Part shown: positions 10-44,734 of the stretch, piece by piece
Layout: each line of letters starts with the position of its first letter
How positions within the stretch are numbered: position 1 is the first letter of the stretch
Source of the DNA: Flavivirga amylovorans
GTDB lineage: Bacteria > Bacteroidota > Bacteroidia > Flavobacteriales > Flavobacteriaceae
NCBI RefSeq assembly: GCF_030540875.1
Contig: NZ_JAUOEM010000003.1
Span: 62,001 to 126,000, forward strand
DNA: 64,000 bases
Direction: 5' to 3'
Notes under the pieces: generated by a model
Seen by the model: only the letters and a program-made list of their open reading frames with translations
Told to the model about the DNA's origin: nothing
The model's database searches: none
Program-made: the position numbers and the translations under genes

Positions 10-1218
10 ATGGCTCAAAACATTGAGAAATTAATAGTAAAGTATCTAACTAATTCAGCAACTTCAACGGATTTAGATACGCTTTCTGAATGGGTTGAAA
101 AGCGAACAAACAGACCTCTATTTAAAGAGTACATACAAACACATGTAGCGATTAACCATAACATGAATGAACCAGAAACCAAAAAAGTTATTGATCAATT
201 CTTAAGTAGAATAAGGAAAGAAAGATCTTTGGGGTATAAAATTAGAAAACAACCTATTTATAGATATATGGCAGCAGCATCTATAGCAATTTTAATTGCA
301 GCTGGACTATGGTTCACAAAGTTGGGTAATACTACAGAACCACAATTTATAGAACCAATTATAGTAAATAACCAAATCCAAACAGGTACCGATAAAGCAA
401 CCCTAACATTGGAGGGTGGGGAACAAATAGCATTAGCCAAGGGTGCTTTGTTCCAAACACAAAATGCCACCAGTAACGGCGAAGAAATCATTTACAACGA
501 TGCTTCTAAAAGCCAGCAGCCAGCAGCCAATAGCAATATTGCCTACAACTACCTAACAATCCCTAGAGGTGGTCAATTCCAACTAACCCTTTCAGATGGG
601 ACACAAGTGTGGTTAAATTCAGAAAGTCGATTAAAATATCCAGTAGCATTTAATAAGGGAGAAACAAGGCAAGTAGAACTGGTATACGGCGAAGCCTATT
701 TCGATGTATCACCAAGTACAGAACATGGAGGAGCATCTTTTAAAGTGATTTCTCCCAACAACCAACAACCAACAACTAGCAACCAAATAATAGAAGTACT
801 AGGTACCGAGTTCAATATCAAAGGATATAAAGATGAGACTAATGTGTACACTACGTTAGTAGAAGGAAAAGTGACTATTTATGCCGAGAACCAAAACAAA
901 ATATTAGCACCTAATCAGCAATCAAATTTAGATACTACAACTAATGATCTATCAATTAGTAACGTCAATGTAAAAGGAGAGATTGCTTGGGTAAATGGTG
1001 AATTCATAATACAAGGTAAAACCCTAAAAGAGATCATAAAAGTATTGTCACGTTGGTACGATATGGATGTAACCTTTGCTAATAGAGATTTAGAAGAAGC
1101 AAGGTTTGTTGGGATATTACGTAAAGATCAAAATATCGTAGACATACTAAACATGATCAAAAATTTCGGAGTCATAAACACTTACGAAATCAATAATAAA
1201 ACGATAACACTCAAATAA
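10..1218 (+). CDS. FecR-type anti-sigma factor, locus A
   Basis: Inner-membrane anti-sigma factor that would hold an ECF sigma factor inactive until a signal arrives from the SusC partner. The N-terminal ~80 residues are the cytoplasmic sigma-binding part. A hydrophobic helix at about residues 86-103 crosses the membrane. A periplasmic FecR domain follows (about 180-310, with TIPRGGQFQLTLSDG and VYGEAYFDVSPS). The C-terminal ~75 residues match the DUF4974/STN-like tail of Bacteroidota FecR proteins and end in NNKTITLK. The ATG at 10 fits the starts of the paralogues at 21351 and 33026. The matching sigma gene should lie just left of the window. The central and terminal parts are nearly identical to the three other FecR genes here, which suggests gene conversion. 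Family assignment is secure; its pairing with the SusC at 1670 is inferred from gene order. Confidence 0.93.
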   Translation: MAQNIEKLIVKYLTNSATSTDLDTLSEWVEKRTNRPLFKEYIQTHVAINHNMNEPETKKVIDQFLSRIRKERSLGYKIRKQPIYRYMAAASIAILIAAGLWFTKLGNTTEPQFIEPIIVNNQIQTGTDKATLTLEGGEQIALAKGALFQTQNATSNGEEIIYNDASKSQQPAANSNIAYNYLTIPRGGQFQLTLSDGTQVWLNSESRLKYPVAFNKGETRQVELVYGEAYFDVSPSTEHGGASFKVISPNNQQPTTSNQIIEVLGTEFNIKGYKDETNVYTTLVEGKVTIYAENQNKILAPNQQSNLDTTTNDLSISNVNVKGEIAWVNGEFIIQGKTLKEIIKVLSRWYDMDVTFANRDLEEARFVGILRKDQNIVDILNMIKNFGVINTYEINNKTITLK

Positions 1219-1220
1219 AT

Positions 1221-1281
1221 TGTCATTGCGAGAAGCGCAGCAAGCTTGTATTGAGCATAGCCGAAATATGGCAATCTTATG
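1221..1281. repeat. Flavobacterial GTCATTGCGAG-type intergenic repeat
   Basis: Directly after the FecR stop lies GTCATTGCGAGAAGCGCAGC, with a matching GGCAATCTTAT end about 45 bases later. This is the form of a palindromic repeat scattered between genes in many Flavobacteriaceae. It has no reading frame of its own. The rest of the 450-base gap holds two copies of the susC leader stem-loop and AT-rich sequence. Confidence 0.6.
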
Positions 1282-1304
1282 AATATAAACTAGAAACAAA
1301 AAAA

Positions 1305-1617: not shown

Positions 1618-1669
1618 CGATAACATTATTAATTAATTAAAAATTAACTAACTAATAACACGCAAATTT

Positions 1670-4600
1670 ATGGAAATTAAATCAATTAAAATCCATGCAG
1701 TCCCTATGAAAATAGAGATCGGCAAAAGGATATTATTAATGATTATGAGAACATTCATTTTCTTACTTTGTACAACAGTTTTCAGTTTAAATACCGAAAT
1801 AGGATTGGCACAAGAAAAAGTCACAATCGATATTGATAAAGAAGTTACAATCGATGAGGTGTTCCAAATTATTATGGACCAAACTAAATTCAACTTTTTA
1901 TATCCCGAAAACTTGTTTAAGGATATGCCCAAAGTACAACTAAAAAAAGGAGTAATAAGGGCAGATAGACTCATTAGTAAAAGCATAGCATCAGGAAAGT
2001 TTAATGTAATACTTACAGAAAACAATAACATTCTTATAAAAAAGAAAACTAGGAAACAACAACGCCAAATTACAGGAAAAGTTACTGGAGAAGATGGCAT
2101 GTCACTAGCAGGTGTAACAGTCTTGGTAAAAGGAACTACAAGAGGGGTCTCTACAAATTTTGACGGGCAATACACCATTACAGTAGCAGATATAGCAAAC
2201 GTTTTAATGTTTTCTTCTATTGGTTATGCCTCTCAGGAAATCACCGTTGGTAATCAAAACACGATAGATGTGGTAATGAAAGAAGAGATTAGTGAACTTG
2301 ATGTTGTAGAGATTAATGCGGGGTATTATAAAACTTCTCAACGCAAAGCAACAGGTAATATCTCTAGAGTAGAATCAAAGGATATAGAACTACAACCAAT
2401 ATCCAACCCATTACAAGCTATACAAGGAAGAATTGCTGGAGTTTCGATAACTCAAGTCTCGGGTGTAGCTGGAGGAAGGGTAGATATTCAAATAAGAGGT
2501 CGTAATAGTTTGAGAGAGGATGGCAACAACCCCTTATATGTCATAGATGGTGTACCATACCCTTCTAATACTTTATTAGATGGAAATCAAGTTGGTATTG
2601 GTGGTACGAATCAAACTGGTAGCCCATTATCTTATATTAATCCAAACGATATAGAATCATTTCAAATATTAAAAGATGCCGATGCTACAGCAATATATGG
2701 CTCCCTGGGAGCTAATGGAGTGGTGTTGATAACAACCAAAAAAGGAACAAAGGGAAAAACTAGTGTAAGTATTAATTTAGCTTCAGGTTTTTCAACGGCA
2801 AGCAAAAAATTAGACCTTTTAAATACTGAACAATATTTAGAAATGCGTTTTGAAGGTAATCCAAATGCTGTTGTCTTTCCACCTTTCTTACAAGAACGTT
2901 TTTTTCCAGATTTATATCTATGGGATCAAAATAGAGAAACTGATTGGCAAGATGAGCTTTTAGGGGGGACAGCAGAACAAACAACGGCTAATATTTCAGT
3001 TTCAGGAGGCAATGAGAAAACTCAATTCAATTTTGGAGCTGGTTATTTTAAGGAAACCACAATATTCCCTACAGATGAAGGTTTTAAGAGAATTTCAAGT
3101 TTGCTAAGTGTAAATCATACGTCCTTAAATAATAAATTTAATGCACACGCTTCTTTAAGTTTTTCTAATACAAAAAATACACTTCCTAGTGCTGACCTAG
3201 CGAGATCTGCATTGACAACAGCACCTAACGCACCAGCATTATATGACGAAAATGGTGAAATTAATTGGGAAAATGGTTTCGATAATCCTATAGCATTACT
3301 TCACAGAGAATATAGTGACGAAACTCAAAATATTATTTTAAATACAAATCTCAATTATGAAATTTTCAAAAACTTAAAATTAGGAGTCTCATTTGGCTAT
3401 AATTCCCAGCATACAAATGCAAATCAAATAACACCTTTAAATACGATCAATCCAACTTTTAGATCATCTTTTGGTAGGGAAAGTAGTTTTGTTAAAGGTG
3501 AATTCAAATCCTGGTTGATGGAACCAAAATTAGAGTTTAATAAGACGTATAACAAATTAAAACTATCGACGTTAATTGGTATGACTTTCCGAGAGGATAT
3601 TCTTCAATCTGAAAGCACAAATGCCACAGGATTTAGTAGCGACTTATTTCTTTTAAACTCGAGCGCTGCTTCGGTATTAGAAGTTAGAGGGACTTCTTTT
3701 TCACAATATAGATATAATGCAATATATGGAAGAGTTAATTTAGATTGGGCAGACAAATACATTTTAAATTTAACTGTTCGTAGAGATGGCTCATCAAGGT
3801 TTGGCCCTAACAAGAGATTTGGAAATTTTGGTGCAGTGGGTGCGGCTTGGTTATTTTCAAGAGAAAATCTTTTAAACGATTCCTCATGGTTAAGTTTTGG
3901 AAAACTTCGTGCGAGCTATGGTATTACCGGTAATGATCAAATTCCTGACTATGGTTATTTAGATTCGTTCGCTTTTTCAAATTTGCCTTATAATAACGTT
4001 GTTGGCTTTGAGGTGTCAAGATTGGCAAATAATAATTATTCATGGGAGTCTGTTAAAAAAATTGAAGTTGGTCTAGAGTTTGGCTTGTTTAAAGACAAAA
4101 TATATACAAATATAAATTGGTACAGTAATCGTGCTACTGATCAGTTAGTTGGACTCCCGTTATCCCAAGTAACGGGGGATAACAATATCCAATTTAATAT
4201 ACCTACTGTAGTAGAAAACCGAGGGTTGGAGTTAGTTATCAACACAACAAATATTAACACTAAAAATTTTAAATGGAATACAAATTTTAATTTAACCGTT
4301 CCTCAAAACGAGCTTTTAGAATTCGATGACATTGAAAAATTCCCTTTCTTTAATAATAAATGGGTTGTTGGCGAGTCTATTAATGGTGGTATTGGTACAG
4401 TTATTAATAGTGGAAAAGTTTTTGAATTTATTGGATTAAATAGCGATACTGGCGATTATGAATTTACAGATTATAACAATGATGGTAGTATAACTGTTGA
4501 GGATCGTCAAAAATATGTAGAGATTGGTCAAAAATATTTTGGTGGTATTCAAAATACCATTACTTACAAAGGATTTGAGTTAGATTTTTTGTTCCAGTTT

Positions 4601-4999
4601 GTTAAACAAAAAGGGTATGATGTATATTTTCCATTTAGCTCACCAGGTGCTTTTGCCCCAATATCTAATCAACCCGTACAAGTATTAGACCGTTGGCAAC
4701 AATCAGGAGACCTAGCAACGTTTCAAAGATTTGGATCATCTGCCTTGTATAATAGGTATATATCTTCTGATGCTATTATTACAGATACTTCTTTTATTAG
4801 ATTGAATAACTTATCACTTTCTTATAATTTATCAAATGAAATTTTGGAAAAACTAAAATTACAGAGGATAAAGGTTTATGCGCAAGGGCAGAATTTGTTC
4901 ACTATTACAAATTATAAAGGATTAAATCCAGAAATAGGAGGAATAGCATTTTCCCCTCCTTTACGCACTATATCTTTAGGAATGGAAATAACTTTTTAA
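1670..4999 (+). CDS. SusC/RagA-type TonB-dependent transporter with STN domain, locus A
   Basis: Outer-membrane channel that imports a substrate captured by its SusD partner, using TonB energy. A long N-terminus and signal peptide (cleavage near residue 48, LAQ) are followed by an STN domain (about 50-125), a carboxypeptidase-regulatory-like domain (about 135-215, starting QRQITGKVTGEDG), a plug (about 225-345, with the typical LKDADATAIYGSLGANGVV) and a beta-barrel to residue 1109. The STN domain marks it as a transducer able to contact the FecR at 10. The start is chosen because ATGGAAATTAAA and the 20 bases before it are conserved in all four paralogues. Plug and barrel are closest to the locus D copy (SLG form of the plug motif). 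The next gene, susD, begins 7 bases downstream. The substrate cannot be read from the sequence. Confidence 0.95.
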   Translation: MEIKSIKIHAVPMKIEIGKRILLMIMRTFIFLLCTTVFSLNTEIGLAQEKVTIDIDKEVTIDEVFQIIMDQTKFNFLYPENLFKDMPKVQLKKGVIRADRLISKSIASGKFNVILTENNNILIKKKTRKQQRQITGKVTGEDGMSLAGVTVLVKGTTRGVSTNFDGQYTITVADIANVLMFSSIGYASQEITVGNQNTIDVVMKEEISELDVVEINAGYYKTSQRKATGNISRVESKDIELQPISNPLQAIQGRIAGVSITQVSGVAGGRVDIQIRGRNSLREDGNNPLYVIDGVPYPSNTLLDGNQVGIGGTNQTGSPLSYINPNDIESFQILKDADATAIYGSLGANGVVLITTKKGTKGKTSVSINLASGFSTASKKLDLLNTEQYLEMRFEGNPNAVVFPPFLQERFFPDLYLWDQNRETDWQDELLGGTAEQTTANISVSGGNEKTQFNFGAGYFKETTIFPTDEGFKRISSLLSVNHTSLNNKFNAHASLSFSNTKNTLPSADLARSALTTAPNAPALYDENGEINWENGFDNPIALLHREYSDETQNIILNTNLNYEIFKNLKLGVSFGYNSQHTNANQITPLNTINPTFRSSFGRESSFVKGEFKSWLMEPKLEFNKTYNKLKLSTLIGMTFREDILQSESTNATGFSSDLFLLNSSAASVLEVRGTSFSQYRYNAIYGRVNLDWADKYILNLTVRRDGSSRFGPNKRFGNFGAVGAAWLFSRENLLNDSSWLSFGKLRASYGITGNDQIPDYGYLDSFAFSNLPYNNVVGFEVSRLANNNYSWESVKKIEVGLEFGLFKDKIYTNINWYSNRATDQLVGLPLSQVTGDNNIQFNIPTVVENRGLELVINTTNINTKNFKWNTNFNLTVPQNELLEFDDIEKFPFFNNKWVVGESINGGIGTVINSGKVFEFIGLNSDTGDYEFTDYNNDGSITVEDRQKYVEIGQKYFGGIQNTITYKGFELDFLFQFVKQKGYDVYFPFSSPGAFAPISNQPVQVLDRWQQSGDLATFQRFGSSALYNRYISSDAIITDTSFIRLNNLSLSYNLSNEILEKLKLQRIKVYAQGQNLFTITNYKGLNPEIGGIAFSPPLRTISLGMEITF

Positions 5000-5006: not shown

Positions 5007-6455
5007 ATGATGAAGAATATTAAAAACGATATAAAAAGAGGTTTGCAAAAAGTTATATTTGCAAATTCACACTCAAAATTAGCTTTAATTTTAATACTAT
5101 TTATTTCATTTATAACTTCTTGTGAGGATTTTGTTGAAATAGATGCGCCACGCAATGAAATTGTAAGAGAAACTGCAATAGTAGATGATGAAACGGCAAT
5201 TGCAGCTGTAAGTGGTATTTATAGTAAAATGATGTCAGGGTCATCTTTTAATCTACCTACTGGTGGTCTTGAAAGACTTATGGGTTTATATTCAGATGAG
5301 TTCTTAAGTGCATCAATAGATGAAAATATCTTTGAATATGTAGAAAGTAACTTGATTGCTTCCAATAATAATTCTGGTGGATTTTGGGGAACATCATTTG
5401 AAGTTTTGTTAAATATAAACTCACTTATTGAAATACTTCAAGATAATGAAAATGTTACTCAAGGGACTAAAAATCAAATTATTGGAGAGGCTAAATTTTT
5501 ACGAGCTTTTTATCATTTCTACTTAACTAACCTTTATGGTCCAATCCCAATTGTTACCTCATCAAATGTTGAGTTAAACAATACCATTTCTCGTAGTTCC
5601 GAAGAAGCTGTCTATAATCAAATAACATTAGATTTAACAGAGGCTTTAGAATTAATGGCAAATAATTTCGATTTTATTAGTGGCAAAAGAATACGCCCTA
5701 ACAGAGATGCAGCTATCGCTCTATTGGCTAGAGTGTATTTGTATGCGGGTGATTGGCAAAAGGCAGAGGATAATGCTACGCTATTAATTAACAACAATTT
5801 GTATAATCTAGAATCAGATTTAAATAACACATTTTTAGCCACAAGTAATGAAGCCATTTGGCAATTACAGCCTGTGTTACCAGATATGTTGGTTCCTCAA
5901 GCCAAATTCTTATTGCTAACCACTGCTCCAACAGGTAATAACATTTTTTTTAGAGAAACTTTTCACGATGAGTTCGAAATTAATGATCAAAGATTTACAA
6001 ACTGGGTTGGGCTATTTTCAGATGTTACTACAGGAGCGGATTATTATTTTTCATTTAAGTATAAAAACAATGCAAATGTCACAAACACGACACAAGAATA
6101 TCTAATTATGTTTAGGCTGGCAGAGCAATATTTAATTCGTGCAGAGGCGAGAGCACAGTTAGGAGATATCTCAGGTTCACAATCCGATTTAAATGTCATT
6201 AGAGGTCGTGCCAGTTTAAACGATACATCAGCAGTAACGGCTAATGATTTATTAGATGATATTTTCCAAGAACGGCAATTAGAATTGTTTGCAGAATGGG
6301 GGCATCGTTGGTTTGATATGAAAAGGACAGGGCGAGCTGATGAAATTTTAAGCCCATTAAAAACAACATGGAAATCAACAAACATAATATTACCAATTCC
6401 AGAGATTGAAATTACTAACAATCCTAACTTATTACCACAAAATTCTGGATATTAA
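5007..6455 (+). CDS. RagB/SusD-type surface lipoprotein, locus A
   Basis: Substrate-binding lid of the SusC channel encoded directly upstream. A hydrophobic signal ends in the lipobox FITSC, so the mature protein starts at Cys and is exported to the cell surface. The SusD fold is recognisable from the early helices (AAVSGIYSKM), the TPR-like LIRAEARAQLGD segment, the ERQLELFAEWGHRWFDMKRT motif and the usual ending NPNLLPQNSGY. The length of 482 aa is normal for the family. It is closest to the locus D SusD. No sugar specificity can be assigned, and no glycoside hydrolase lies nearby. Confidence 0.94.
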   Translation: MMKNIKNDIKRGLQKVIFANSHSKLALILILFISFITSCEDFVEIDAPRNEIVRETAIVDDETAIAAVSGIYSKMMSGSSFNLPTGGLERLMGLYSDEFLSASIDENIFEYVESNLIASNNNSGGFWGTSFEVLLNINSLIEILQDNENVTQGTKNQIIGEAKFLRAFYHFYLTNLYGPIPIVTSSNVELNNTISRSSEEAVYNQITLDLTEALELMANNFDFISGKRIRPNRDAAIALLARVYLYAGDWQKAEDNATLLINNNLYNLESDLNNTFLATSNEAIWQLQPVLPDMLVPQAKFLLLTTAPTGNNIFFRETFHDEFEINDQRFTNWVGLFSDVTTGADYYFSFKYKNNANVTNTTQEYLIMFRLAEQYLIRAEARAQLGDISGSQSDLNVIRGRASLNDTSAVTANDLLDDIFQERQLELFAEWGHRWFDMKRTGRADEILSPLKTTWKSTNIILPIPEIEITNNPNLLPQNSGY

Positions 6456-8139: not shown

Positions 8140-8141
8140 TT

Positions 8142-8612
8142 ATGAAGGTAAAAAAAACAATGCTTCTATATGCTTTATTTGTATTAAGTATAACCTACTT
8201 ACAGGCCCAAATCCTAGAACCAGCCAAATGGTCATATACAATTCAGGAAAATTCAAGCCAAGAGTTAGAATTAACGTTTAAGGTGAGCCTGGATGATACT
8301 TGGTACGTATATGCAACAGACCAAAACCCAGATTTAGGACCTATTCCAACAACAATAAACTTAGAAGGTTCAGGTTTTAAAATTATAGGAGAACCAAAAC
8401 CAATAAAAGTAAAAACCAAATACGATGAAATTTGGGAAGGAGATACTCGGGTTATTACAGAGTCAGGTGGTGGTTTTACACAACGCATCAAAGTTTTAGA
8501 ACCTAATCCTAAAATAAAGGCAACCATAAACTACACAGTGTGCTCCATGGAAACAGGCCAATGTGTATTCGGTGAGCAAGAGTTTGATATTAATCTTAAT
8601 CAGAGCAAATAA
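8142..8612 (+). CDS. Stand-alone DsbD-alpha-like periplasmic protein, locus A
   Basis: A 156-aa secreted protein with a signal peptide ending near AQ. The body (LEPAKW, LDDTWYVYATDQNPDLGPIPT, WEGDTRVITESGGGFTQRI) matches the N-terminal immunoglobulin-like domain of DsbD, which passes electrons to periplasmic thiol proteins. The redox pair is Cys134 and Cys141 in YTVCSMETGQCVFGEQEF, spaced C-x6-C; E. coli DsbD has C-x5-C. There is no DsbD membrane part and no second thioredoxin domain, so it must receive electrons from elsewhere or act as a shuttle or chaperone. The partner is most likely the TlpA-like protein encoded 2 bases upstream. The C-terminal 35 residues are identical or nearly so in all four loci. 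Confidence 0.85.
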   Translation: MKVKKTMLLYALFVLSITYLQAQILEPAKWSYTIQENSSQELELTFKVSLDDTWYVYATDQNPDLGPIPTTINLEGSGFKIIGEPKPIKVKTKYDEIWEGDTRVITESGGGFTQRIKVLEPNPKIKATINYTVCSMETGQCVFGEQEFDINLNQSK

Positions 8613-8815: not shown

Positions 8816-8849
8816 CTTTAGTTATTTAGAGATAGGTGTCGTGTTTTTT
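8803..8849 (+). terminator. Intrinsic terminator of locus A
   Basis: CACGACATC (8805-8813) pairs with GGTGTCGTG (8835-8843), with one G-T pair, and is followed directly by six T. Equivalent hairpins end loci B and C. Confidence 0.85.
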
Positions 8850-8855
8850 GTTGTC

Positions 8856-31860: not shown

Positions 31861-31861
31861 C

Positions 31862-34592: not shown

Positions 34593-37500
34593 ATGGAAAT
34601 TAAATCAATTAAAATCCATGCAATTCCTATGAAAATAGGAATCAGCAAACGGATACTCTTAATGATGATGAGAACATTCATTTTCTTACTATGCACAACG
34701 GTTTTCAGTTTAAATACTGATATCACGAACGCACAAGAAAAGGTCAAAATAGATCGGGATAAGGTCATGACCGTCGATGAAGTCTTCGATATGATTATTG
34801 ACCAAACAAAATACAGCTTTCTATATCCAACCAATTTATTTGAGAATACCCCAAATGTAGAAGTGAAAAAAGGTGTGATGAGCGTTGGTAAACTCTTACA
34901 ACAAACACTGCCCAAAGGCAAATTCAATGTCATCTTAGGAGCCGATAACAGAATTACTATTAAACAGAAATCCCAATCTCAACAGCGTCAAATCACAGGT
35001 AAGGTTACTGGAGAAGATGGCATGCCACTAGCTGGAGTAACAGTAATTGTAAAAGGGACTCAACGAGGAGTAGCAACCGACTTCGATGGGCAATACACTA
35101 TTACTGTCATTGACAATTCTAATGTCCTAATGTTTTCATCTATCGGATACGCAAGTCAAGAAATTACAGTAGGAAATCAAAAAACTATAGATGTTGTATT
35201 AAAGGAAGAGATAAGCGAATTAGATGTTATCGAGATTAACGCTGGTTACTACAAAACCTCTCAACGAAAAGCAACAGGTAATATTTCTAGGGTAGAAGCG
35301 AAAGATATCGAGTTACAGCCAGTTACAAATCCATTACAGGCAGTACAAGGAAGAATGAGTGGGGTATCCATTGTACAAAATACTGGTGTTCCTGGAGGTG
35401 GTATTAGTATCCAGATTCGTGGTAGAAACAGCTTACGTAGAGATGGTAATGATGCCTTATATGTAATTGATGGTGTGCCTTATCCAATAAGGGGATTTAC
35501 AAATGGGTCTATTGGAAGTGCTCTAAGCGCAGGAAACCCACTTGCATTCATAAATCCCAATGATATAGAATCTTTTCAAGTTTTAAAAGATGCGGATGCC
35601 ACTGCTATTTATGGTTCTTTAGGAGCTAATGGTGTTGTTCTAATAACAACGAAAAAAGGAAAAGTAGGCAGAACCTCAGTTAGTGCAAATATAACTACTG
35701 GTTTTGGTGAAGTCAGTAAAAAACTAGATTTGTTAAATACAGAACAATACTTAGAAATGCGTTTAGAAGGGAATCCAAATTTACCTAATTTCCCACCATT
35801 TATTCAAGAACGATTTGCACCAGATGTTTTTGTCTGGGATCAAAGCAGGTATACAGATTGGCAAGAGGAGTTAATTGGCGGTACTGCTATGCAAACAAAT
35901 GCAAACGTTTCTGTTTCCGGTGGTAATGAAAACACTCAATTTAATTTCTCAACAGGTTATTTTAAAGAAACTACGGTGTTTCCTACAGATGAAGGTTTTA
36001 GAAGGGTTTCGGGCTTATTAAATGTAGTTCATACTTCTAACAACAATAGATTTAATATAAATGCATCAGTAAAGTATTCTAATAGTAGAAATGCATTGCC
36101 TGTTATTGATTTAACGAGAACAGCAGTAACGTTACCACCTAATGCACCTGAATTATACGATGCTAATGGAGGCATTAATTGGGAGAATAATTCATTTAAT
36201 AACCCATTAGCGTTTCTTGAAGGAGATTATAATGATCAAACAGAGAGTATAATAGCAAATGCAGATTTAGGATATCAACTGTTTAACGGTTTTAAAGTAA
36301 AAGCATCAATAGGTTACAATTTTCTAGATTTTAATGGTAATAGTATTCGTCCTTTATCGGCCATAAGACCAGATAGTAGATTATTTTCACAAAGAAGTAG
36401 TCGGTTTAATCAAGGAAATAATAAATTCTGGATATTTGAACCTCAATTAGAATATAATAAGAATTTCGGGAAGCTAAGATTAACTACGTTATTTGGGACT
36501 ACTTTTCGAGAAGATATTAGAGAAACAACGGATATAAGAGCCGAAGGGTTTTCAAGAGATGAATTTTTACTTAATGTTGACGCAGCTACATCAACAGAGG
36601 TGTCTTCAACGTATACACAATATAAATATAATGCTTTTTTTGCCAGAATTAATCTAGACTGGGGAAATAAGTATTTGTTAAATTTAACGGCTCGTAGAGA
36701 TGGTTCTTCACGTTTTGGTCCAAATAAAAAGTTTGGAAATTTCGGAGCAATTGGTGGAGCATGGATTTTTACAGAAGAAGATTTTACTAAAAATATTTCT
36801 TGGTTAACTTTTGGGAAGTTTCGTGGGAGTTATGGAATTACAGGAAATGACCAAATCGGAGATTATAATTTTTTAGACACTTATTCATTTGTTGATAATC
36901 CATATAATAACATTACTGGTTTTAATGTTACGCGATTGGCTAATCCAGATTTTTCATGGGAATCAGTAAAAAAGTTAGAGTTTGGTTTAGAATTAGGATT
37001 CTTTAATGAAAAAATATTAACAAATATTAGTTGGTATCAAAACAGGGCGTCAGATCAGTTGATTGGTCTACCCTTATCTACTGTAACTGGTGCTAGCTCT
37101 TTACAATTTAATTTGCCAACAGTTGTAGAAAACACGGGGCTAGAAATAGAACTTAGTACAGCTAACATAAATAACAAAAATTTTAATTGGTCAACCAACT
37201 TTAACTTAACCATTCCAAGAAACAAGTTACTTGAGTTTCAAAATATCGAGGATTTTCCAACTTTTGATAATGTATGGGTAGTAGGCGAATCAATTAATGG
37301 AAATAGTGGTAAGTATTTTGAGTTTATGGGTATAAATGATAATAATGGAACTTATGACTTTACAGATTTTGACAATAATGGTTCAATAAGTGAAACTGAT
37401 AACCAGAAATATATTGAAGTCGGTCAGAAGTATTTTGGTGGAATTCAAAACATTATTAGTTATAAAGGCTTTACTTTGGATTTTTTGTTTCAGTTTGTAA

Positions 37501-37895
37501 AACAGACTGGACGTGATGTGTATTTTGGATTTGCCTCCCCAGGTGCTCTTACAGCAAGCAATCAACCAGCACAGGTTATAGATCGCTGGCAACAAGCGGG
37601 TGATCTAGCAAGGTTTCAAAAATATGGAAATAACAGCAATTATTTTCGTTATATACAATCAGATGCCATTATAACAGATACTTCATTCATTCGTTTAAAT
37701 AATCTTTCATTATCATATAGTCTACCTAATACGGTATTGGAAACTCTAAAGATGCAAAATTTAAGGGTGTTTGTACAGGGGCAAAATTTGTTTACTATTA
37801 CAGATTTTAAAGGATTAAACCCTGAAGTAGGCGGTTCTTCTGTCGCTTTACCTCCTTTACGTATAATAAGTTTAGGACTAGATTTATCATTTTAA
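34593..37895 (+). CDS. SusC/RagA-type TonB-dependent transporter with STN domain, locus D (mosaic)
   Basis: Outer-membrane importer of 1,100 aa with signal peptide, STN domain, carboxypeptidase-regulatory-like domain, plug (LKDADATAIYGSLGANGVV) and barrel. It is a mosaic of its paralogues. The first ~25 residues (MEIKSIKIHAIPMKI) follow locus A, the signal peptide end and early STN (DITNAQEKVKIDRDKVMTVD) follow locus B, the late STN and next domain (ADNRITIKQKSQSQQRQITG) follow locus C, and the plug and barrel follow locus A again. It should signal to the FecR at 33026. susD starts 11 bases after the stop. Confidence 0.95.
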   Translation: MEIKSIKIHAIPMKIGISKRILLMMMRTFIFLLCTTVFSLNTDITNAQEKVKIDRDKVMTVDEVFDMIIDQTKYSFLYPTNLFENTPNVEVKKGVMSVGKLLQQTLPKGKFNVILGADNRITIKQKSQSQQRQITGKVTGEDGMPLAGVTVIVKGTQRGVATDFDGQYTITVIDNSNVLMFSSIGYASQEITVGNQKTIDVVLKEEISELDVIEINAGYYKTSQRKATGNISRVEAKDIELQPVTNPLQAVQGRMSGVSIVQNTGVPGGGISIQIRGRNSLRRDGNDALYVIDGVPYPIRGFTNGSIGSALSAGNPLAFINPNDIESFQVLKDADATAIYGSLGANGVVLITTKKGKVGRTSVSANITTGFGEVSKKLDLLNTEQYLEMRLEGNPNLPNFPPFIQERFAPDVFVWDQSRYTDWQEELIGGTAMQTNANVSVSGGNENTQFNFSTGYFKETTVFPTDEGFRRVSGLLNVVHTSNNNRFNINASVKYSNSRNALPVIDLTRTAVTLPPNAPELYDANGGINWENNSFNNPLAFLEGDYNDQTESIIANADLGYQLFNGFKVKASIGYNFLDFNGNSIRPLSAIRPDSRLFSQRSSRFNQGNNKFWIFEPQLEYNKNFGKLRLTTLFGTTFREDIRETTDIRAEGFSRDEFLLNVDAATSTEVSSTYTQYKYNAFFARINLDWGNKYLLNLTARRDGSSRFGPNKKFGNFGAIGGAWIFTEEDFTKNISWLTFGKFRGSYGITGNDQIGDYNFLDTYSFVDNPYNNITGFNVTRLANPDFSWESVKKLEFGLELGFFNEKILTNISWYQNRASDQLIGLPLSTVTGASSLQFNLPTVVENTGLEIELSTANINNKNFNWSTNFNLTIPRNKLLEFQNIEDFPTFDNVWVVGESINGNSGKYFEFMGINDNNGTYDFTDFDNNGSISETDNQKYIEVGQKYFGGIQNIISYKGFTLDFLFQFVKQTGRDVYFGFASPGALTASNQPAQVIDRWQQAGDLARFQKYGNNSNYFRYIQSDAIITDTSFIRLNNLSLSYSLPNTVLETLKMQNLRVFVQGQNLFTITDFKGLNPEVGGSSVALPPLRIISLGLDLSF

Positions 37896-37906: not shown

Positions 37907-39319
37907 ATGAATAATAAAATATATAAGTTAAATACATGCTTAATATGCATATTAATAGGAACTTTATTGTGGAGTTGCGAAGATTTTGTTGAAGTCGATG
38001 CACCAAGAAATGAAATCATAAGAGAAACAGCTATTACCGATGATGAGTCAGCGGTTGCAGCCATAAGTGGTATTTATAGTGAATTTGAATCAAACGGAAG
38101 CTTTACAAATAGTGATTTAGATAGACTTATGGGACTGTATTCAGATGAACTATTAGCTTCACCAAATAGTGAAACTGAACTTGAATATTTTCAAAGCAAT
38201 CTAACTGTAGAAAACGGTCATTCAGATATTTTTTGGTCTAGTAGCTTTAATTCTTTGCTAAATATCAACTCCCTTTTAGAGATATTAGAGGATAATAACC
38301 AAGTAACTCAAGAATTAAAAAATCAAATTGAAGGAGAGGCTAAGTTCCTACGTGCATTTAGTCATTTTTATTTAACAAATTTATTTGGTAGGTCTCCTAT
38401 TATCACATCATCAGATGTAGTAACAAATAATACCATTTCGCGGAGTGATGAACAGATGGTATATCAGCAAATCATTTTAGATTTGGAAGATGCTATCGGT
38501 TTAATGGCAGCCGATTTCAGTTTTATAGAAGGTAAAAGAATTCGTCCAAATAGAGATGCAGCCATAGCTTTGTTAGCGAGAACATATTTGTACATTGAAG
38601 ATTGGGAAAAAGCTGAAGAACAAGCAACACTTTTGATAAATAATAATTTATACACTCTAGAAACTGATTTAAATGATGTGTTTTTAGCTGCAAATGATGA
38701 GGCCATTTGGCAAATTGAACCCTCTCAAATAAGTACAAACTTTACTGTACTACAGGCGAATAGATTTGTTATTCAACAAACAGCAATAGGCCTTGGTAGT
38801 CGCTCCGTTTTTAGAAATGAACTTATCAATTCTTTTGAAGTTGGAGATAGAAGGTTTACAGATTGGGTAGGTAGTTTTAATGACCCTGGAACAGGAATAA
38901 ATTATTATTTTCCTTATAAATATAAAAATGTTACGAACAATATAGTTAGAGATCAAGAATATTTATCGGTTTTCCGTTTAGCCGAACAGTATTTAATCAG
39001 AGCTGAAGCTCGAGCCAAACAAGGTAATATAATAGGTGCTCAATCAGATGTTAACAGCATTCGGAATAGGGCAGGTTTAGCAAATACTACTGCAAATACC
39101 CAAGTAGATCTATTGATGGCAGTGGAACAAGAGCGAAAAGTTGAGTTGTTTACAGAATTTGCTCATAGATGGCTTGATATTAAGCGTACAGGTAAGGCGG
39201 ATGCAGTTTTAAGTCCTATTAAAACCGATAGTTGGAGGTCAACAAATACACTTCTTCCTATTTCATTATCAGAAATTGAAATTAATCCCAATTTATTACC
39301 TCAAAATCAAGGATACTAA
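37907..39319 (+). CDS. RagB/SusD-type surface lipoprotein, locus D
   Basis: Partner of the SusC upstream, 470 aa. The lipobox is TLLWSC, then EDFVEVDAPRNEI. SusD landmarks are AAISGIYSEF, LIRAEARAKQGN, ERKVELFTEFAHRWLDIKRT and the ending NPNLLPQNQGY. It groups with locus A, in step with the SusC barrels. Confidence 0.94.
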   Translation: MNNKIYKLNTCLICILIGTLLWSCEDFVEVDAPRNEIIRETAITDDESAVAAISGIYSEFESNGSFTNSDLDRLMGLYSDELLASPNSETELEYFQSNLTVENGHSDIFWSSSFNSLLNINSLLEILEDNNQVTQELKNQIEGEAKFLRAFSHFYLTNLFGRSPIITSSDVVTNNTISRSDEQMVYQQIILDLEDAIGLMAADFSFIEGKRIRPNRDAAIALLARTYLYIEDWEKAEEQATLLINNNLYTLETDLNDVFLAANDEAIWQIEPSQISTNFTVLQANRFVIQQTAIGLGSRSVFRNELINSFEVGDRRFTDWVGSFNDPGTGINYYFPYKYKNVTNNIVRDQEYLSVFRLAEQYLIRAEARAKQGNIIGAQSDVNSIRNRAGLANTTANTQVDLLMAVEQERKVELFTEFAHRWLDIKRTGKADAVLSPIKTDSWRSTNTLLPISLSEIEINPNLLPQNQGY

Positions 39320-39433: not shown

Positions 39434-40990
39434 ATGAAAAGAGTCAATATTTACAAAGAAATCGTAATAATGTTCATGATTTTAATGTGCGGTTTTTGTA
39501 CAGATGCTCAAGGGCAACAACCTACCTTGAAAGTAGGCGATAAGGCACCCGAAATATCTATTTTTAAGTGGATCAAAGGCAATGAGGTCAAAAATTTTGA
39601 AAAAGGTAAGGTGTATGTATTGGAATTTGGAGCTACTTGGTGTACTGGCTGTATAAAAATGATTCCTTTTTTATCATATTTGGCAGAAAAGTATAAAGAC
39701 GAGGTAGAGGTGCTTGACTTTTTTGTGATGGAAGCCAATAATGAACCCATAGGAACTAAAAATCCAAACTACGTGCAACGTGTAGAACGCTTTGTTACAA
39801 AAAAAACAGATGAAATAAGCTATAGAGTAGCTGTGGATACAGAAGATGAGCGTATGCGGAATGATTGGTTAAAAGCTGCTGGACTATCTGGATTACCTCA
39901 GTCTTTCGTAATTGATAAAAATGGATTTATTGCTTGGATTGGAATAGGGAAAAAGAGTCTAGAAGAAGCGGTTAAATTTGCTTCATCCAAAGATTATCAA
40001 CTAAAAAAAGCCATTGAGAATTATAAAATAGAGCAAAACCGTATTGTAAAAATTGATATGGATAAACCTTTATTTGTCCATGAAGGTAAAGGTGATAATA
40101 ATGACTTTATGTACAGGTCGGTTTTAAAAAAAGCAAAATCAATCCTACCAGTAGAGAACCAGGAGTATTACTTATATACTCGTACTTGGTTCGACAAAAA
40201 GACTCAAAACGATTCATCTTTAAGCCGTCCAGGATTAGCGCAATGGGTCAATATGGAACCTATTGATTTGTATAGAATAGCTTATGGAGACACCTTAATC
40301 AATCAAGCAATGCCTTTCAGACACCCGTTTAAAAAAAAACAAATCTGGGTGGATGAATGGTCTCCATTTTTTAAATCAGCTTATGGAATGTCTTGGCATA
40401 CACCCATTATAGAAGTTAAAACCAATCCAGAATTAGTCGGCACTGACCTTTGGAAAAACAAAAACTTTAAGTCGGTCAAAAATAAATACCATTATAGTGT
40501 GCAAGTACCAGAAGAAAAGGCATCGGGTCTATTTGTACAAGAGGTCATGCAACGTGACTTAAAAAACTATTTTGGGTATGATGTTTCTGTAGAAATAAGA
40601 GAGATGCCCATATGGAAATTAAAAGCAACCCCAAATGCTATGGGGTTGTTAAAAACTAAAACACCAAATCAGAAATATAGAGAGGAATTTCCTGCAGATG
40701 GGTCATGGAATTATAAAAATGCCATTATGAGAGACATGGTTCGTTTACTTGGAAACTCACTTTTTGGTTGTCGTCAATATAGTCAAGGTCGAATCAAGGT
40801 ACAGGAAGAAGTTCCATTTATTGATGAAACTGGTTTCGGAGATTATCACATAGATTTTGAGGCTACTGAAGCTGACAGAAAATCATTTAATAGCTATGGT
40901 AAATATCTAGAATCAAAAGGTCTTTATTTAGAAAAATCTACCAAGCCTATGAAAGTTATAATTATCAGAGACCCAAAAAGTAGATTATAA
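39434..40990 (+). CDS. TlpA-like thioredoxin fused to a DUF3738-like domain, locus D
   Basis: Secreted thiol-disulfide protein of 518 aa. The signal peptide (IVIMFMILMCGFCTDAQG) precedes GDKAPEISIFKW. The active site is WCTGC (Cys70, Cys73) and the cis-proline loop SGLPQSFVIDKNG. The DUF3738-like half has YHYSVQVPEEKA, FGYDVSVEIREMPIWKL, FIDETG and GLYLEKSTKPMKVIIIRDP. Outside the active site it is closest to locus A (VNMEPIDLYRIAYGDTL). The ABC ATPase gene begins 23 bases downstream. Confidence 0.85.
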   Translation: MKRVNIYKEIVIMFMILMCGFCTDAQGQQPTLKVGDKAPEISIFKWIKGNEVKNFEKGKVYVLEFGATWCTGCIKMIPFLSYLAEKYKDEVEVLDFFVMEANNEPIGTKNPNYVQRVERFVTKKTDEISYRVAVDTEDERMRNDWLKAAGLSGLPQSFVIDKNGFIAWIGIGKKSLEEAVKFASSKDYQLKKAIENYKIEQNRIVKIDMDKPLFVHEGKGDNNDFMYRSVLKKAKSILPVENQEYYLYTRTWFDKKTQNDSSLSRPGLAQWVNMEPIDLYRIAYGDTLINQAMPFRHPFKKKQIWVDEWSPFFKSAYGMSWHTPIIEVKTNPELVGTDLWKNKNFKSVKNKYHYSVQVPEEKASGLFVQEVMQRDLKNYFGYDVSVEIREMPIWKLKATPNAMGLLKTKTPNQKYREEFPADGSWNYKNAIMRDMVRLLGNSLFGCRQYSQGRIKVQEEVPFIDETGFGDYHIDFEATEADRKSFNSYGKYLESKGLYLEKSTKPMKVIIIRDPKSRL

Positions 40991-41013: not shown

Positions 41014-41937
41014 ATGGTAAATAGCATATTAAAAGTACAGAACCTCACACACTATTATGGAAATAAAGTTGCAGTTAACGATATATCATTAGAAATTAAG
41101 AGTAATGGAGTACTTGGTTTATTGGGATCTAATGGTGCAGGTAAATCTACTACTATAAATATTTTGTGCGGTGTTTTAAGCCCTACAAAAGGAGATGTTT
41201 TTATTAATGGAATTAATATTCGCAATAATCAAATAGCAAGTAAAAAATTAATAGGGTTTTTACCTCAAAAGGCACCATTGTATTTTGATTTAACAGTTAA
41301 TGAATATTTAGAGTATTGCGCTAAAATAAGACTAATACCAAATGTAAAAATTAGAAATGCTGTAGAAAGAGTAAAGCAGTTATGTAATATATCTCACTTC
41401 AGTAAAGCTCTAATACGCAGTTTGTCTGGTGGCTATCAACAAAGAGTTGGTATTGCACAAGCTATTATTCACGATCCAAAATTAGTAGTTTTTGATGAGC
41501 CTACAAATGGTCTAGATCCAGTACAGGTACTTGAAGTTAGGAAACTTATTCAGACTATAAGTAAAGATAGGGCTGTTTTGTTGTCTACTCATATTCTTTC
41601 AGAAGTACAAGCCACTTGTTCTAATATCATTATGATTGAAAAGGGAAATAAGGTGTTTTCTGGTAGTATAGAAGATTTTAATAATTATGTAGCGCCCAAT
41701 ACTTTATCCATAAAAATGATATTACCTCCAGAATTAGAGGAGTTTCTTCTAATATGTGGTGTTGAAGAGGTAGATTTTAAAAATGAAATAATTCTTGTTA
41801 AAACCAATGACATTATAAAAACTTCAAAAGCGATTATTGAGAGAAGTATTAAAAGTAATTGGGGGCTAATAGAGATTTTTCCATTAAAAAATTCATTAGA
41901 TGATGTATTTGCAGAGTTATCTTCATCAATAAATTAA
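41014..41937 (+). CDS. ABC transporter ATPase (GldA/CcmA-like), cargo of locus D
   Basis: Cytoplasmic ATPase of 307 aa that would power the permease encoded 8 bases downstream. It has a Walker A GSNGAGKST, a Q-loop LPQKAPLYFDLT, signature LSGGYQQRVGIAQA, Walker B LVVFDEPTNGLDP and switch His in STHILSE. The group is the drug/ABC-2 family that includes the gliding protein GldA. The full gliding genes are not here, so I do not name it gldA. Confidence 0.92.
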   Translation: MVNSILKVQNLTHYYGNKVAVNDISLEIKSNGVLGLLGSNGAGKSTTINILCGVLSPTKGDVFINGINIRNNQIASKKLIGFLPQKAPLYFDLTVNEYLEYCAKIRLIPNVKIRNAVERVKQLCNISHFSKALIRSLSGGYQQRVGIAQAIIHDPKLVVFDEPTNGLDPVQVLEVRKLIQTISKDRAVLLSTHILSEVQATCSNIIMIEKGNKVFSGSIEDFNNYVAPNTLSIKMILPPELEEFLLICGVEEVDFKNEIILVKTNDIIKTSKAIIERSIKSNWGLIEIFPLKNSLDDVFAELSSSIN

Positions 41938-41945
41938 GACAAATT

Positions 41946-44252
41946 ATGATTATAATAAAAATAGCATTACTTGAATTAAGGAAGTTCTTTTATTCACCAA
42001 TAGCTTGGTTGTTAGCAATTATATTCATTGTTCAAGCTGGAGTTTCATTTATTGATTTGTTAGAGACCTACGAAAGTTACCTCCAAAGAGGCACTTACCA
42101 AATTACAGATTTAACTTATAGAATTTTCTCTAACGAGCTAGCGTTATTCAATAATATTGTAAAAAATGCATTCATATATATCCCTCTTTTAACAATGGGT
42201 ATTATTAGTAATGAATTAAATACTGGTTCAATAAAGTTATTATTTTCATCTCCAATCTCAATTAAACAAATTGTTCTTGGTAAATATTTAGCCTTGTTAT
42301 GCTATTGCTTAATGCTATTAGGTCTTCTTTTTTTGGTCAGCATTATTGGTATTTACTCAATACAGTTTGCTGATGTAGGGTTAATAATTTCAGGGTTATT
42401 AGGAATATATTTCCTTTTGGCAACCTATACAGCTATTGGTCTATTTATTTCAAGTTTATCTTCTTATCAAGTAGTAACGGCTATAATAACATTTGGTGTT
42501 ATAGCTTTTCTAAATATTGTAGGCGTTACTTGGCAGGAAACACCTGTAATTAACGAAATTAATTACTGGCTTTCTATACCTGAAAGAACAGAACAACTAA
42601 TAAATGGTCTAATGACTAGTGAAGGCATTTTTTATTTTATAATAATCATAGTAATGTTTTTAGTCCTTACTATTTTAAGGTTGTCATTTAAAAAGAATGA
42701 CAAACCTTGGTATTATAAGTCGTCACTATACTTGTGTACTATAGTTTTGTCATTTGGGTTAGGTCACTTAACAAGCAAGCCAGAAAACAAGTTTTATTGG
42801 GATATGTCGAGAAATAAAAGAAATACTCTTTCTAATGAATCATTAGAAATTGTTAAACAATTAAAAGATCGCCCTTTAAAGATGGTATCCTTTGTAAATC
42901 TATTTAGTGAAAATACAATTATTAGTGGTCTTCCAAGACACCATAATAGAAATGCCAGATGGTTTGAGAAATTTACTAGATTTTTACCTCAATTAGAAAT
43001 GGAGTATGTGTATTTCTATGATATTATTTCAAATGCAAATGATAGTATATTTGAAAAGTATCCAGATCATTCATTAGAGGAAATTGCAAGAATTTATGCT
43101 AAATCATATGGTTTAAATTTTGAAGATGTTTTAGGACCTTCTGAAATCAAAAAATTAATAGATTTAAGTGATGAAGATAATGAGTACGTAAGAATGTTTC
43201 AATTAAACAATGATGTAAGATCTTTTGTTCGCATATTTTATGACACACAACATTTTCCATTAGAAGCAGAAAATGCAGCATCCTTAAAACAACTGTTGGG
43301 CAATGAGGTTAAAGTAAAGTTTATTCAGGGGCATCTTGAACGCGGATTTAACGAATTTGATTCAGGTTACGGTCATATGATAAAGGGTTCCAAACAAAGA
43401 AGCTCATTAAGAAATGCAGGTTTTAAATTTGGTTTAACTTATTTAGAAAGAGACACCTTAAATATAAATCATGACATTCTTGTATGGGCAGCTCCTAATG
43501 ATTCTCTATCAGAAAAAGAGCTTAATCTATTTAGAAAATATATTAATGATGGCGGGAACGCATTATTTTTAATAGAGCCAAAAAGAAGCAGTCAGAATAT
43601 CGAATCCATTAATAGTTTGCTAGGTGTAAATTTTAAATCAAAAATAATAAGACAGGATATTAAAGATATGGAAGACGGTTTTGTTATTGGTAAGGTAACA
43701 GAAGCCGGTAAGCATTTAAATAAAAATAATGGTTATAGACAATCACCAAATCATTTAGCTAATGATAAAGAACTTACATTCAACGGTGCTCTTGGTTTAT
43801 ATCTGTTAGATGAAAATAATTTTAAGGTAACATCTGTTATAGAAACTACTAGTTCAACTTATACAATTGTAGATAGCACTCAAACCCCTATTGATAAACC
43901 AATACCATTGGTTATTGCTCTCGAGAGAACTGTAAATCAAAAGAAACAAAAGATTATGATTGCAGGCGATGCTGACTTCTTAAGTAATAGAGAATTAAGA
44001 AGTAGAGTTGGTGTGGGTATAAGAATGGCTTTTAATAGGGGTTATATAAAAGACATATTTAGATGGTTGTCAGATGGGGTATATCCAATAGATACATTTA
44101 ATAACAGACTTAAAAATTTCAAGGATTCAGATACAAAATTCAATGTAAATAGTCAACAAATAAAAGTATTAAATCTATTGTTAGTCGTTGTGATTCCATC
44201 AATTATTTTCTTAATTGGCTCAATAATATTAATTATAAGAAAGAAGAGATGA
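41946..44252 (+). CDS. Fused ABC-2 permease and GldG-like protein, cargo of locus D
   Basis: Inner-membrane protein of 768 aa. Residues about 1-260 contain six or so hydrophobic helices of an ABC-2 permease like GldF (ELNTGSIKLLFSSPIS marks the usual loop). Then comes a GldG/ABC-auxiliary domain with a large soluble part (KRNTLSNESLEIVKQLKDRP at its start) and a final helix near residues 740-762. In Flavobacterium, GldF and GldG are separate proteins, so this is a fusion. It overlaps the DsbD-alpha gene by 4 bases. It could export a product of the locus or take over a ligand brought in by SusCD. Confidence 0.85.
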   Translation: MIIIKIALLELRKFFYSPIAWLLAIIFIVQAGVSFIDLLETYESYLQRGTYQITDLTYRIFSNELALFNNIVKNAFIYIPLLTMGIISNELNTGSIKLLFSSPISIKQIVLGKYLALLCYCLMLLGLLFLVSIIGIYSIQFADVGLIISGLLGIYFLLATYTAIGLFISSLSSYQVVTAIITFGVIAFLNIVGVTWQETPVINEINYWLSIPERTEQLINGLMTSEGIFYFIIIIVMFLVLTILRLSFKKNDKPWYYKSSLYLCTIVLSFGLGHLTSKPENKFYWDMSRNKRNTLSNESLEIVKQLKDRPLKMVSFVNLFSENTIISGLPRHHNRNARWFEKFTRFLPQLEMEYVYFYDIISNANDSIFEKYPDHSLEEIARIYAKSYGLNFEDVLGPSEIKKLIDLSDEDNEYVRMFQLNNDVRSFVRIFYDTQHFPLEAENAASLKQLLGNEVKVKFIQGHLERGFNEFDSGYGHMIKGSKQRSSLRNAGFKFGLTYLERDTLNINHDILVWAAPNDSLSEKELNLFRKYINDGGNALFLIEPKRSSQNIESINSLLGVNFKSKIIRQDIKDMEDGFVIGKVTEAGKHLNKNNGYRQSPNHLANDKELTFNGALGLYLLDENNFKVTSVIETTSSTYTIVDSTQTPIDKPIPLVIALERTVNQKKQKIMIAGDADFLSNRELRSRVGVGIRMAFNRGYIKDIFRWLSDGVYPIDTFNNRLKNFKDSDTKFNVNSQQIKVLNLLLVVVIPSIIFLIGSIILIIRKKR

Positions 44253-44734
44253 AAAGAAAATTCATTAAAAAATTAATAGTACTATGTGTATCTATTATGA
44301 TGGTTTTAGGTCTTAACGCTCAAAGTTTGGTATCCGCCCACTGGTCATTAGAAAAATCAATAACCCTTATAGAGCCAGGGCAAGAGCTAGAACTAACGTT
44401 TAAGGTGAATCTGGATGATACGTGGTACATATACGCCACAGACCAAGATCCAGACTTAGGACCAATACCAACGTCTGTAACGCTAGAGGGTCAAGGTTTC
44501 AAATTAATAGGAAATCCAAAACCAATAAAAGCAAAAACCAAATACGATGAGGTCTGGGAAGGCGATACACGAGTAATCACAGAATCAGGTGGTGGTTTTA
44601 TACAACGCATCAAAGTTTTAGAACCTAATCCTAAAATAAAGGCAACCATAAACTACACAGTGTGCTCCATGGAAACAGGCCAATGTGTATTCGGTGAGCA
44701 AGAATTTATTATCAAGCTAAATCAGAGCAAATAG
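44249..44734 (+). CDS. Stand-alone DsbD-alpha-like periplasmic protein, locus D
   Basis: A 161-aa secreted protein; its start codon overlaps the permease stop (ATGA), so translation is coupled. It has the signal peptide, LDDTWYIYATDQDPDLGPIP, TRVITESGGGFIQRIKVLEP and the pair in VCSMETGQCVFGEQEF. A few extra residues lie at the N-terminal end of the mature part. It is the last gene of the four-locus array. Confidence 0.85.
   Translation: MKRKFIKKLIVLCVSIMMVLGLNAQSLVSAHWSLEKSITLIEPGQELELTFKVNLDDTWYIYATDQDPDLGPIPTSVTLEGQGFKLIGNPKPIKAKTKYDEVWEGDTRVITESGGGFIQRIKVLEPNPKIKATINYTVCSMETGQCVFGEQEFIIKLNQSK

What the first reader, a model, noticed from the sequence alone, without database searches (positions are those of the whole stretch)
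10..44734. Four tandem sigma/FecR/SusCD/TlpA/DsbD-alpha loci with a variable cargo slot
Seen: the same gene order occurs four times head to tail, with constant genes on both sides of a slot that holds nothing (A), a subtilase (B), a phosphatase plus DUF4397 lipoprotein (C) or an ABC ATPase plus GldF/G-like permease (D). Known: SusCD pairs import ligands, STN-FecR-sigma chains sense them, and TlpA and DsbD-alpha handle thiols. Inferred: this is one system in which an outer-membrane importer and a periplasmic redox pair serve exchangeable effector enzymes. No carbohydrate-active enzyme is present, so the ligand is probably not a glycan. I know of no description of this architecture.
Basis: partly seen in the sequence, partly recalled or inferred. 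Interest (0 to 1): 0.82.

Follow-up and report, generated by a model that had tools for sequence, protein, structure and literature searches.

The report
Peptide-import operons with swappable enzyme slot
This bacterium carries five neighbouring copies of a regulated outer-membrane import operon with its own disulfide-handling proteins and a changing processing enzyme; relatives of these operons elsewhere sit beside genes for tiny secreted cysteine-paired peptides, so the operons probably take in and dismantle such peptides, an apparently undescribed system.

Summary
The array is not one tandem duplication: the SusD tree puts A, D and Z together, B beside a subtilase locus of another family, C beside a Croceivirga locus. 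DsbD-alpha plus about 0.5 kb of non-coding spacer is homogenised between copies while SusC, SusD and TlpA are saturated at fourfold sites, so this block looks like the recombination joint. The slot idea holds with limits: cargo follows SusD lineage but was swapped (15 changes; minimum 8; shuffled 31).

The new link lies outside the window. Relatives sit convergently beside a DUF6520 peptide, an unnamed membrane protein ('P352') and MauE. All 25 examined P352 genes, found without reference to SusCD, face a SusD within 8 kb; the gene after SusD is usually a TlpA-like thioredoxin or an S9, M16, Met-zincin or amidohydrolase enzyme. DUF6520 peptides carry an even cysteine number in 71 of 76 cases. 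The window SusDs fall inside this clade, but the window has no such peptide. Best reading: sigma/FecR-controlled importers for disulfide-bonded peptides, with periplasmic reduction and variable processing. Ligand unproven.

The parts
10..1218 (+). Locus A: FecR anti-sigma (FecR + FecR_C)
   Evidence: Pfam E 8e-15 and 3e-15; its divergent sigma gene is outside the window at C7:61273-61872
1670..4999 (+). Locus A: SusC/RagA transporter with STN-like N-terminus
   Evidence: Plug and CarbopepD_reg_2; STN only E 0.087
5007..6455 (+). Locus A: SusD
   Evidence: PF14322 and PF07980
6565..8139 (+). Locus A: TlpA-like thioredoxin (CVPC) + DUF3738-like domain
8142..8612 (+). Locus A: free DsbD-alpha domain, signal peptide, C-x6-C
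   Evidence: PF11412 E 7e-6; alignment
8205..8855 (.). Homogenised DsbD-alpha/spacer repeat, copy A
   Evidence: 89% to copy B over 654 bp
9478..10017 (+). Locus B: ECF sigma (distinct lineage and orientation)
10135..11298 (+). Locus B: FecR
   Evidence: FecR 1e-16, FecR_C 3e-16
11497..14793 (+). Locus B: SusC/RagA
   Evidence: TIGR04056 717 bits, cut-off 368
14807..16249 (+). Locus B: SusD
   Evidence: tree sister of L140
16381..17922 (+). Locus B: TlpA (CRGC) + DUF3738-like
   Evidence: model m8c04831cc603 pLDDT 90.5
17924..19423 (+). Locus B cargo: S8 subtilase lipoprotein, Asp/His/Ser motifs present
   Evidence: PF00082 E 4e-45; motifs read
19426..19890 (+). Locus B: DsbD-alpha
   Evidence: PF11412 E 5e-6
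19483..20570 (.). Homogenised repeat, copy B
   Evidence: 90% to copy C over 1040 bp, mostly non-coding
20645..21235 (-). Locus C: ECF sigma, divergent
21351..22532 (+). Locus C: FecR
   Evidence: 62-66% to the other window FecRs over the best stretch
22887..26195 (+). Locus C: SusC
   Evidence: 50-55% to the other window SusCs
26206..27618 (+). Locus C: SusD
27712..29295 (+). Locus C: TlpA (CKPC) + DUF3738-like
29297..30382 (+). Locus C cargo: secreted calcineurin-like (ApaH-like) phosphoesterase
   Evidence: PF00149 E 2e-16
30412..31152 (+). Locus C cargo: DUF4397 lipoprotein
   Evidence: PF14344 E 9e-8
31193..31651 (+). Locus C: DsbD-alpha
   Evidence: PF11412 24.1 bits, just below cut-off 25; 75% to copies A and B
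31298..32350 (.). Homogenised repeat, copy C
32309..32908 (-). Locus D: ECF sigma, divergent
32990..34186 (+). Locus D: FecR
34593..37895 (+). Locus D: SusC
   Evidence: 67% to locus A
37907..39319 (+). Locus D: SusD
   Evidence: 61% to locus A
39434..40990 (+). Locus D: TlpA (CTGC) + DUF3738-like
41014..41937 (+). Locus D cargo: ABC ATPase (GldA-related, not GldA)
   Evidence: PF00005 E 2e-30; GldA model 250 bits, cut-off 403
41946..44252 (+). Locus D cargo: fused GldF/GldG-like permease
   Evidence: PF12679 and PF09822; TIGR03518 below cut-off
44249..44734 (+). Locus D: DsbD-alpha
   Evidence: PF11412 24.8 bits, cut-off 25
44381..44956 (.). Homogenised repeat, copy D
   Evidence: 82% to copies A, B and C over about 580 bp

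Best explanation
Each locus is a ligand-induced outer-membrane importer for small disulfide-containing peptides. SusD captures the peptide and SusC carries it in by TonB power (inferred from family). Uptake is reported through the SusC N-terminus, FecR and the ECF sigma (inferred from family). In the periplasm the TlpA domain reduces the peptide's disulfides; the free DsbD-alpha passes electrons to TlpA from a membrane DsbD encoded elsewhere (C7:240464). A locus-specific enzyme then processes the peptide or a group on it: a subtilase in B, a phosphoesterase plus DUF4397 lipoprotein in C, an ABC transporter in D, nothing in A. The loci belong to a wide Bacteroidota system in which the same SusCD clade is normally convergent with a DUF6520 peptide gene, P352 and MauE. 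In this array the peptide module is absent locally and DsbD-alpha is present instead. The bank grew by joining at least three lineages through the DsbD-alpha/spacer repeat. Shown: anatomy, clade, neighbour association, mosaic, slot exchange. Inferred: ligand, direction of transport, redox direction, signalling.
For: SusD clade: the five window SusDs sit in a 60-row clade (SH-aLRT 100) whose other rows are linked to TlpA, MauE or P352; the single 'background' row in it (L237) proved to have a MauE-like gene and a DUF6520-like peptide gene, and 20 other background SusDs fall outside. WB is sister (100) to L140, which has a subtilase plus MauE, P352 and two DUF6520 peptides. 25 of 25 examined P352 genes face a SusD within 8 kb, all convergent; chance about 1e-16 for 18 of them. 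DUF6520 membership; even cysteine number in 71 of 76. Slot contents are mostly peptidases of unrelated classes or thioredoxins. Thioredoxin fold with CxxC. DsbD-alpha with conserved C-x6-C follows TlpA in L157, L169, L171 and L183; full DsbD in L159 and L185. Mosaic: fourfold identity 0.49-0.78 for DsbD-alpha against 0.23-0.43 for SusC, SusD and TlpA; spacer 80-92%. ABC cargo shared with a distant TlpA.
Against: No DUF6520 peptide gene lies in the window or the fetched flanks (20 kb left, 14 kb right) and the P352 and MauE genes of this genome lie elsewhere, so the ligand is argued from relatives only. DUF6520 could be a component of the machine and not its ligand. Redox direction (reducing or oxidising) is not shown. 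The phosphoesterase and ABC cargo do not fit simple peptide digestion. The STN domain is below the Pfam cut-off. DsbD-alpha and MauE tend to exclude each other only weakly (p 0.026, loci not independent).
Confidence: 0.5

Rival explanations
1. General protein and peptide scavenging: the loci import peptides from any source as nutrient, like RagAB, and the enzymes digest them; DUF6520 peptides in relatives are accessory parts of the transporter or periplasm, not ligands.
For: Slot proteases of several classes; SusC of locus B also matches RagA; protease-associated import is known for Fus/PqqL (PMC6793856).
Against: A general feeder would not need a peptide gene with a conserved leader and variable core (76% against 38%) beside almost every copy, nor five diverged receptors in one array.
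Confidence: 0.27
2. Oxidative folding unit: TlpA and its partners (MauE in relatives, as MauD/MauE in methylamine dehydrogenase) make or proof-read disulfides in exported DUF6520 peptides or in SusCD and cargo proteins; import is secondary.
For: MauE is near most TlpA-DUF3738 loci; even cysteine count in the peptides.
Against: DsbD and DsbD-alpha are reducing in known systems (own knowledge); many MauE/P352/peptide loci have no TlpA but a protease; the window has no peptide to fold.
Confidence: 0.13
3. Metal or thiol cofactor acquisition: a copper- or sulfur-containing ligand is taken up, with thiol proteins and a NosY-like ABC permease handling it.
For: CysK-like enzymes lie beside full DsbD in L159 and L185; the permease of D is PF12679.
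Against: No metal chaperone or metal-site protein in any of the five loci; proteases dominate the slot in relatives.
Confidence: 0.07
4. Ordinary polysaccharide utilisation loci with unusual neighbours.
For: SusC and SusD of locus B match solved SusCD homologues.
Against: No carbohydrate-active enzyme in five of five loci, and none among the slot proteins scanned in relatives.
Confidence: 0.03

Closest known systems
RagAB / SusCD peptide importers (RagA-RagB of Porphyromonas gingivalis; BT2263-BT2264)
   Same: SusC/RagA barrel and SusD lid; peptide ligand proposed here
   Different: Here with TlpA-DUF3738, DsbD-alpha, variable enzyme, sigma/FecR control, and in relatives a DUF6520/MauE/P352 module
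Fus / PqqL-YddB protease-associated import systems (PMC6793856)
   Same: TonB-dependent import coupled to a periplasmic protease in one gene cluster
   Different: SusCD instead of FusA-type barrel; several unrelated protease classes in the slot; disulfide-handling proteins; Bacteroidota
MauD/MauE of methylamine dehydrogenase biogenesis
   Same: TlpA-like thioredoxin together with MauE (relatives of the window loci)
   Different: No methylamine dehydrogenase seen; the window loci have DsbD-alpha and no MauE
DsbD
   Same: Alpha domain with a cysteine pair; full or split DsbD in related loci
   Different: Free-standing alpha domain; C-x6-C spacing; membrane part only in trans in this genome
GldA/GldF/GldG gliding ABC transporter
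   Same: ATPase and fused permease related by sequence
   Different: Below the equivalog cut-offs; belongs to an import operon

Membership tests
SusC/RagA (TIGR04056) | score over curated cut-off | tested here: met
   717 bits, cut-off 368
Polysaccharide utilisation locus | susCD pair with carbohydrate-active enzymes | tested here: not met
   susCD present, no such enzyme in the loci
DUF6520-linked SusCD clade (defined here) | SusD inside the clade | tested here: met
   SH-aLRT 100
DUF6520-linked SusCD clade (defined here) | DUF6520 peptide, P352 and MauE within 8 kb | tested here: not met
   no peptide in window, L004 or L006; MauE and P352 of this genome lie on other contigs
Fus-type protease-associated import | TonB-dependent transporter with periplasmic M16 protease | tested here: not met
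   no M16 protease in the window loci; S8 in B; M16 in relatives L200, L201, L207 and L212
TlpA/ResA thioredoxin | thioredoxin fold with CxxC | tested here: met
   CxxC in all window copies; best PDB match 4nmu E 3e-10, VIA Z 17.8, rmsd 1.9 over 135 residues to 3gl3
DUF3738 (PF12543) | score over cut-off 22 bits | tested here: inconclusive
   22.1-22.4 bits for three copies in six-frame search, 20-21 bits by hmmscan
DsbD N-terminal (PF11412) | score over cut-off 25 and redox cysteine pair | tested here: met
   A 26.5 and B 26.9 over; C 24.1 and D 24.8 just under; cysteine pair invariant
STN signalling domain (PF07660) | score over cut-off 28.4 on SusC N-terminus | tested here: inconclusive
   E 0.02-0.09 in Z and A, none in B, C, D; alignment looks STN-like
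STN signalling domain (PF07660) | DUF3738 module is STN-like | tested here: inconclusive
   VIA best 3ezj GspD N-domain Z 3.8, 75 residues, rmsd 3.3; profile comparison with SusC N-termini shows no similarity
GldA / GldF | score over equivalog cut-off | tested here: not met
   250 of 403 and 87 of 288 bits
Simple tandem duplication | window copies form one clade | tested here: not met
   A, D, Z / B with L140 / C with L013; TlpA tree agrees for A, D, Z and for C, leaves B unresolved

The most novel reading that the evidence does not exclude
DUF6520 genes encode secreted, disulfide-locked peptides with a constant leader and variable core, each taken back or read by its own SusCD, whose entry fires FecR/sigma and whose destruction needs thioredoxin or a protease. 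This would be a peptide signalling or weapon-and-immunity system of Bacteroidota, and the window array a receiver-only bank for peptides made elsewhere or by others.
Probability: 0.22. Interest if true: 0.87.

Novelty: new variant of a known kind. Interest (0 to 1): 0.68.

Why it matters
Many SusCD pairs have no assigned ligand. A large SusD clade that is marked by a nearby small cysteine-paired peptide gene gives a concrete candidate ligand for each member and makes it testable by pull-down. The interchange of S9, M16, Met-zincin, S8, amidohydrolase and thioredoxin genes at one site argues for a shared task (dismantling a disulfide peptide), and DUF6520, DUF3738 and P352 would gain a function. 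The array also shows a way in which such loci may accumulate, by recombination at a shared DsbD-alpha/spacer block.

Tried and rejected
Simple tandem duplication: rejected by the SusD tree, with the TlpA tree in agreement for A, D, Z and C. DUF3738 as an STN-type signalling domain: only a weak structural hit (Z 3.8) and no profile similarity; left open. Foldseek of the DUF3738 module against PDB gave no match under E 0.001, so its fold remains unassigned. Ligand class from the nearest solved SusCD: unhelpful, both RagA and other SusC homologues match. Purifying selection alone as the cause of DsbD-alpha similarity: rejected because non-coding spacer is equally alike and fourfold sites are closer. 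Literature: no paper in the library holds DUF3738, DUF6520 or NVEALA, none holds MauE, TlpA and Flavobacterium together, and only PMC10434189 holds TlpA, SusD, thioredoxin and operon, where TlpA occurs once, in a table of iron-regulated genes. Fisher test of DsbD-alpha against MauE is weak and on related loci.
Full report
1. What is there. The window is contig C7:62001-126000 of a 4.86 Mb draft genome, by its gene content and its relatives a Bacteroidota. Four loci, A to D, carry FecR, SusC, SusD, a TlpA-like thioredoxin with a DUF3738-like C-terminal half, optional cargo, and a free DsbD-alpha domain. Cargo is none in A, an S8 subtilase lipoprotein in B, an ApaH-like phosphoesterase plus DUF4397 lipoprotein in C, and an ABC ATPase plus fused GldF/GldG-like permease in D. 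A fifth locus, Z, lies upstream: DUF4397 cargo and a DsbD-alpha gene with an in-frame loss of about 64 codons. Only these five loci in the genome match the TlpA-DUF3738 profile over most of its length, and none of 11 congeners has one.

2. The array is a mosaic of at least three lineages. In the TlpA tree and the SusD tree A and D are sisters with Z next; C is sister to a Croceivirga locus (L013/L171) that also has phosphoesterase and DUF4397 genes, in another order; B is sister, by SusD, to L140 of a different family, which also carries a subtilase. By contrast DsbD-alpha and the following 0.2-0.7 kb of non-coding DNA are 80-92% alike between loci. Identity at fourfold sites is 0.49-0.78 for DsbD-alpha but 0.23-0.43 for SusC, SusD and TlpA. 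The DsbD-alpha/spacer block has therefore been homogenised and is the likely joint at which loci were added. An ancient tandem family whose members later spread to other lineages is not excluded.

3. The constant core in other genomes. A profile of the TlpA C-terminal half found the family in 7 of 397 genomes of the same family, 8 of 395 of the phylum and 44 of 295 of another family. TlpA is next to SusC/SusD in nearly all fetched loci. DsbD-alpha follows TlpA in L157, L169, L171 and L183; full DsbD adjoins or lies near it in L159 and L185, with a CysK-like enzyme. In L013 the DsbD is split into alpha and beta-gamma genes.

4. The missing partner. Convergent with most of these loci lies a set not seen in the window: a DUF6520 peptide of about 80-100 aa with signal peptide, an unnamed protein of about 355 aa ('P352') and MauE. 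MauE and P352 are one open reading frame in several genomes. Starting from P352 alone, all 25 examined genes face a SusD within 8 kb on the opposite strand; with 3 to 80 SusD per genome the chance for 18 of them is about 1e-16 (two further hits at contig ends were not examined). In one genome with only three SusD genes, two are at such sites. This genome has three such loci elsewhere, on C13 (two) and C1. The window SusDs fall inside the clade of these SusDs, and 20 background SusDs fall outside.

5. The slot. In the clade the gene after SusD is S9 prolyl oligopeptidase (8 loci), M16 (4), Met-zincin DUF4953 (4), amidohydrolase with propeller (1), a differently built TlpA-like protein (2), nothing (L195 and one copy on C13), or TlpA-DUF3738; subtilase follows TlpA in six loci of the SusD tree. 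On the SusD tree the slot needs 15 changes, against a minimum of 8 and 31 when shuffled: inherited with the transporter, but exchanged repeatedly. The ABC pair of D recurs in Polaribacter L169 (53% and 38%) beside a TlpA that is an outgroup.

6. The peptides. Of 76 distinct DUF6520-like peptides, 29 have two, 40 have four and 2 have six cysteines after residue 24; only 5 have an odd number. Among seven from this genome and a congener the first 26 residues are 76% alike and the rest 38%. None is encoded in the window or its fetched flanks.

7. How it probably works. See the best explanation. Steps resting on family knowledge: SusCD import, FecR/sigma signalling, DsbD-alpha to TlpA electron transfer. 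The ligand is inferred from neighbours and clade. The DUF3738-like half has a confident model (pLDDT 93) but no assigned fold.

8. Known or new. SusCD with FecR/sigma is known (own knowledge); protease-linked TonB import is known from Fus and PqqL (PMC6793856). The combination with DUF6520, P352, MauE, TlpA-DUF3738 and DsbD-alpha was not found in the literature that could be searched, which lacks most subscription journals. I rate it a new variant of a known kind.

Noticed in passing
L004:18550-18825 (contig C7:60550-60825): Shortened DsbD-alpha in locus Z: signal peptide and cysteine end kept, about 64 codons lost in frame.
   Followed up: partly
L194 (C13:5000-24900) and L195 (C1:937000-956900) of the same genome: Three DUF6520/P352/MauE sets beside other SusCD pairs, one with Met-zincin, thioredoxin and DUF4397; four DUF6520 paralogues with near-identical leaders on C13.
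   Followed up: partly
L156, L158, L160-L162, L173-L177, L179, L182, L184, L186, L187: A second, distant SusD lineage, mostly with order TlpA-SusC-SusD, also has MauE 5-7 kb away, in many cases with DUF6520-like peptides.
   Followed up: no
L205, L206, L208-L211, L213, L215: MauE and P352 fused in one reading frame of about 500 aa.
   Followed up: no
L152: Six DUF6520-like peptide genes in one 17 kb stretch.
   Followed up: no
L159 and L185: CysK-like PLP enzyme directly after full DsbD in SusCD-TlpA loci, hinting at cysteine in the ligand.
   Followed up: no
window 45140-45673: 177-aa membrane-anchored protein without Pfam match, downstream of locus D.
   Followed up: no
window 61388-63151: Beta-lactamase-fold protein with DUF3471 and TPR, unrelated to the array.
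   Followed up: no
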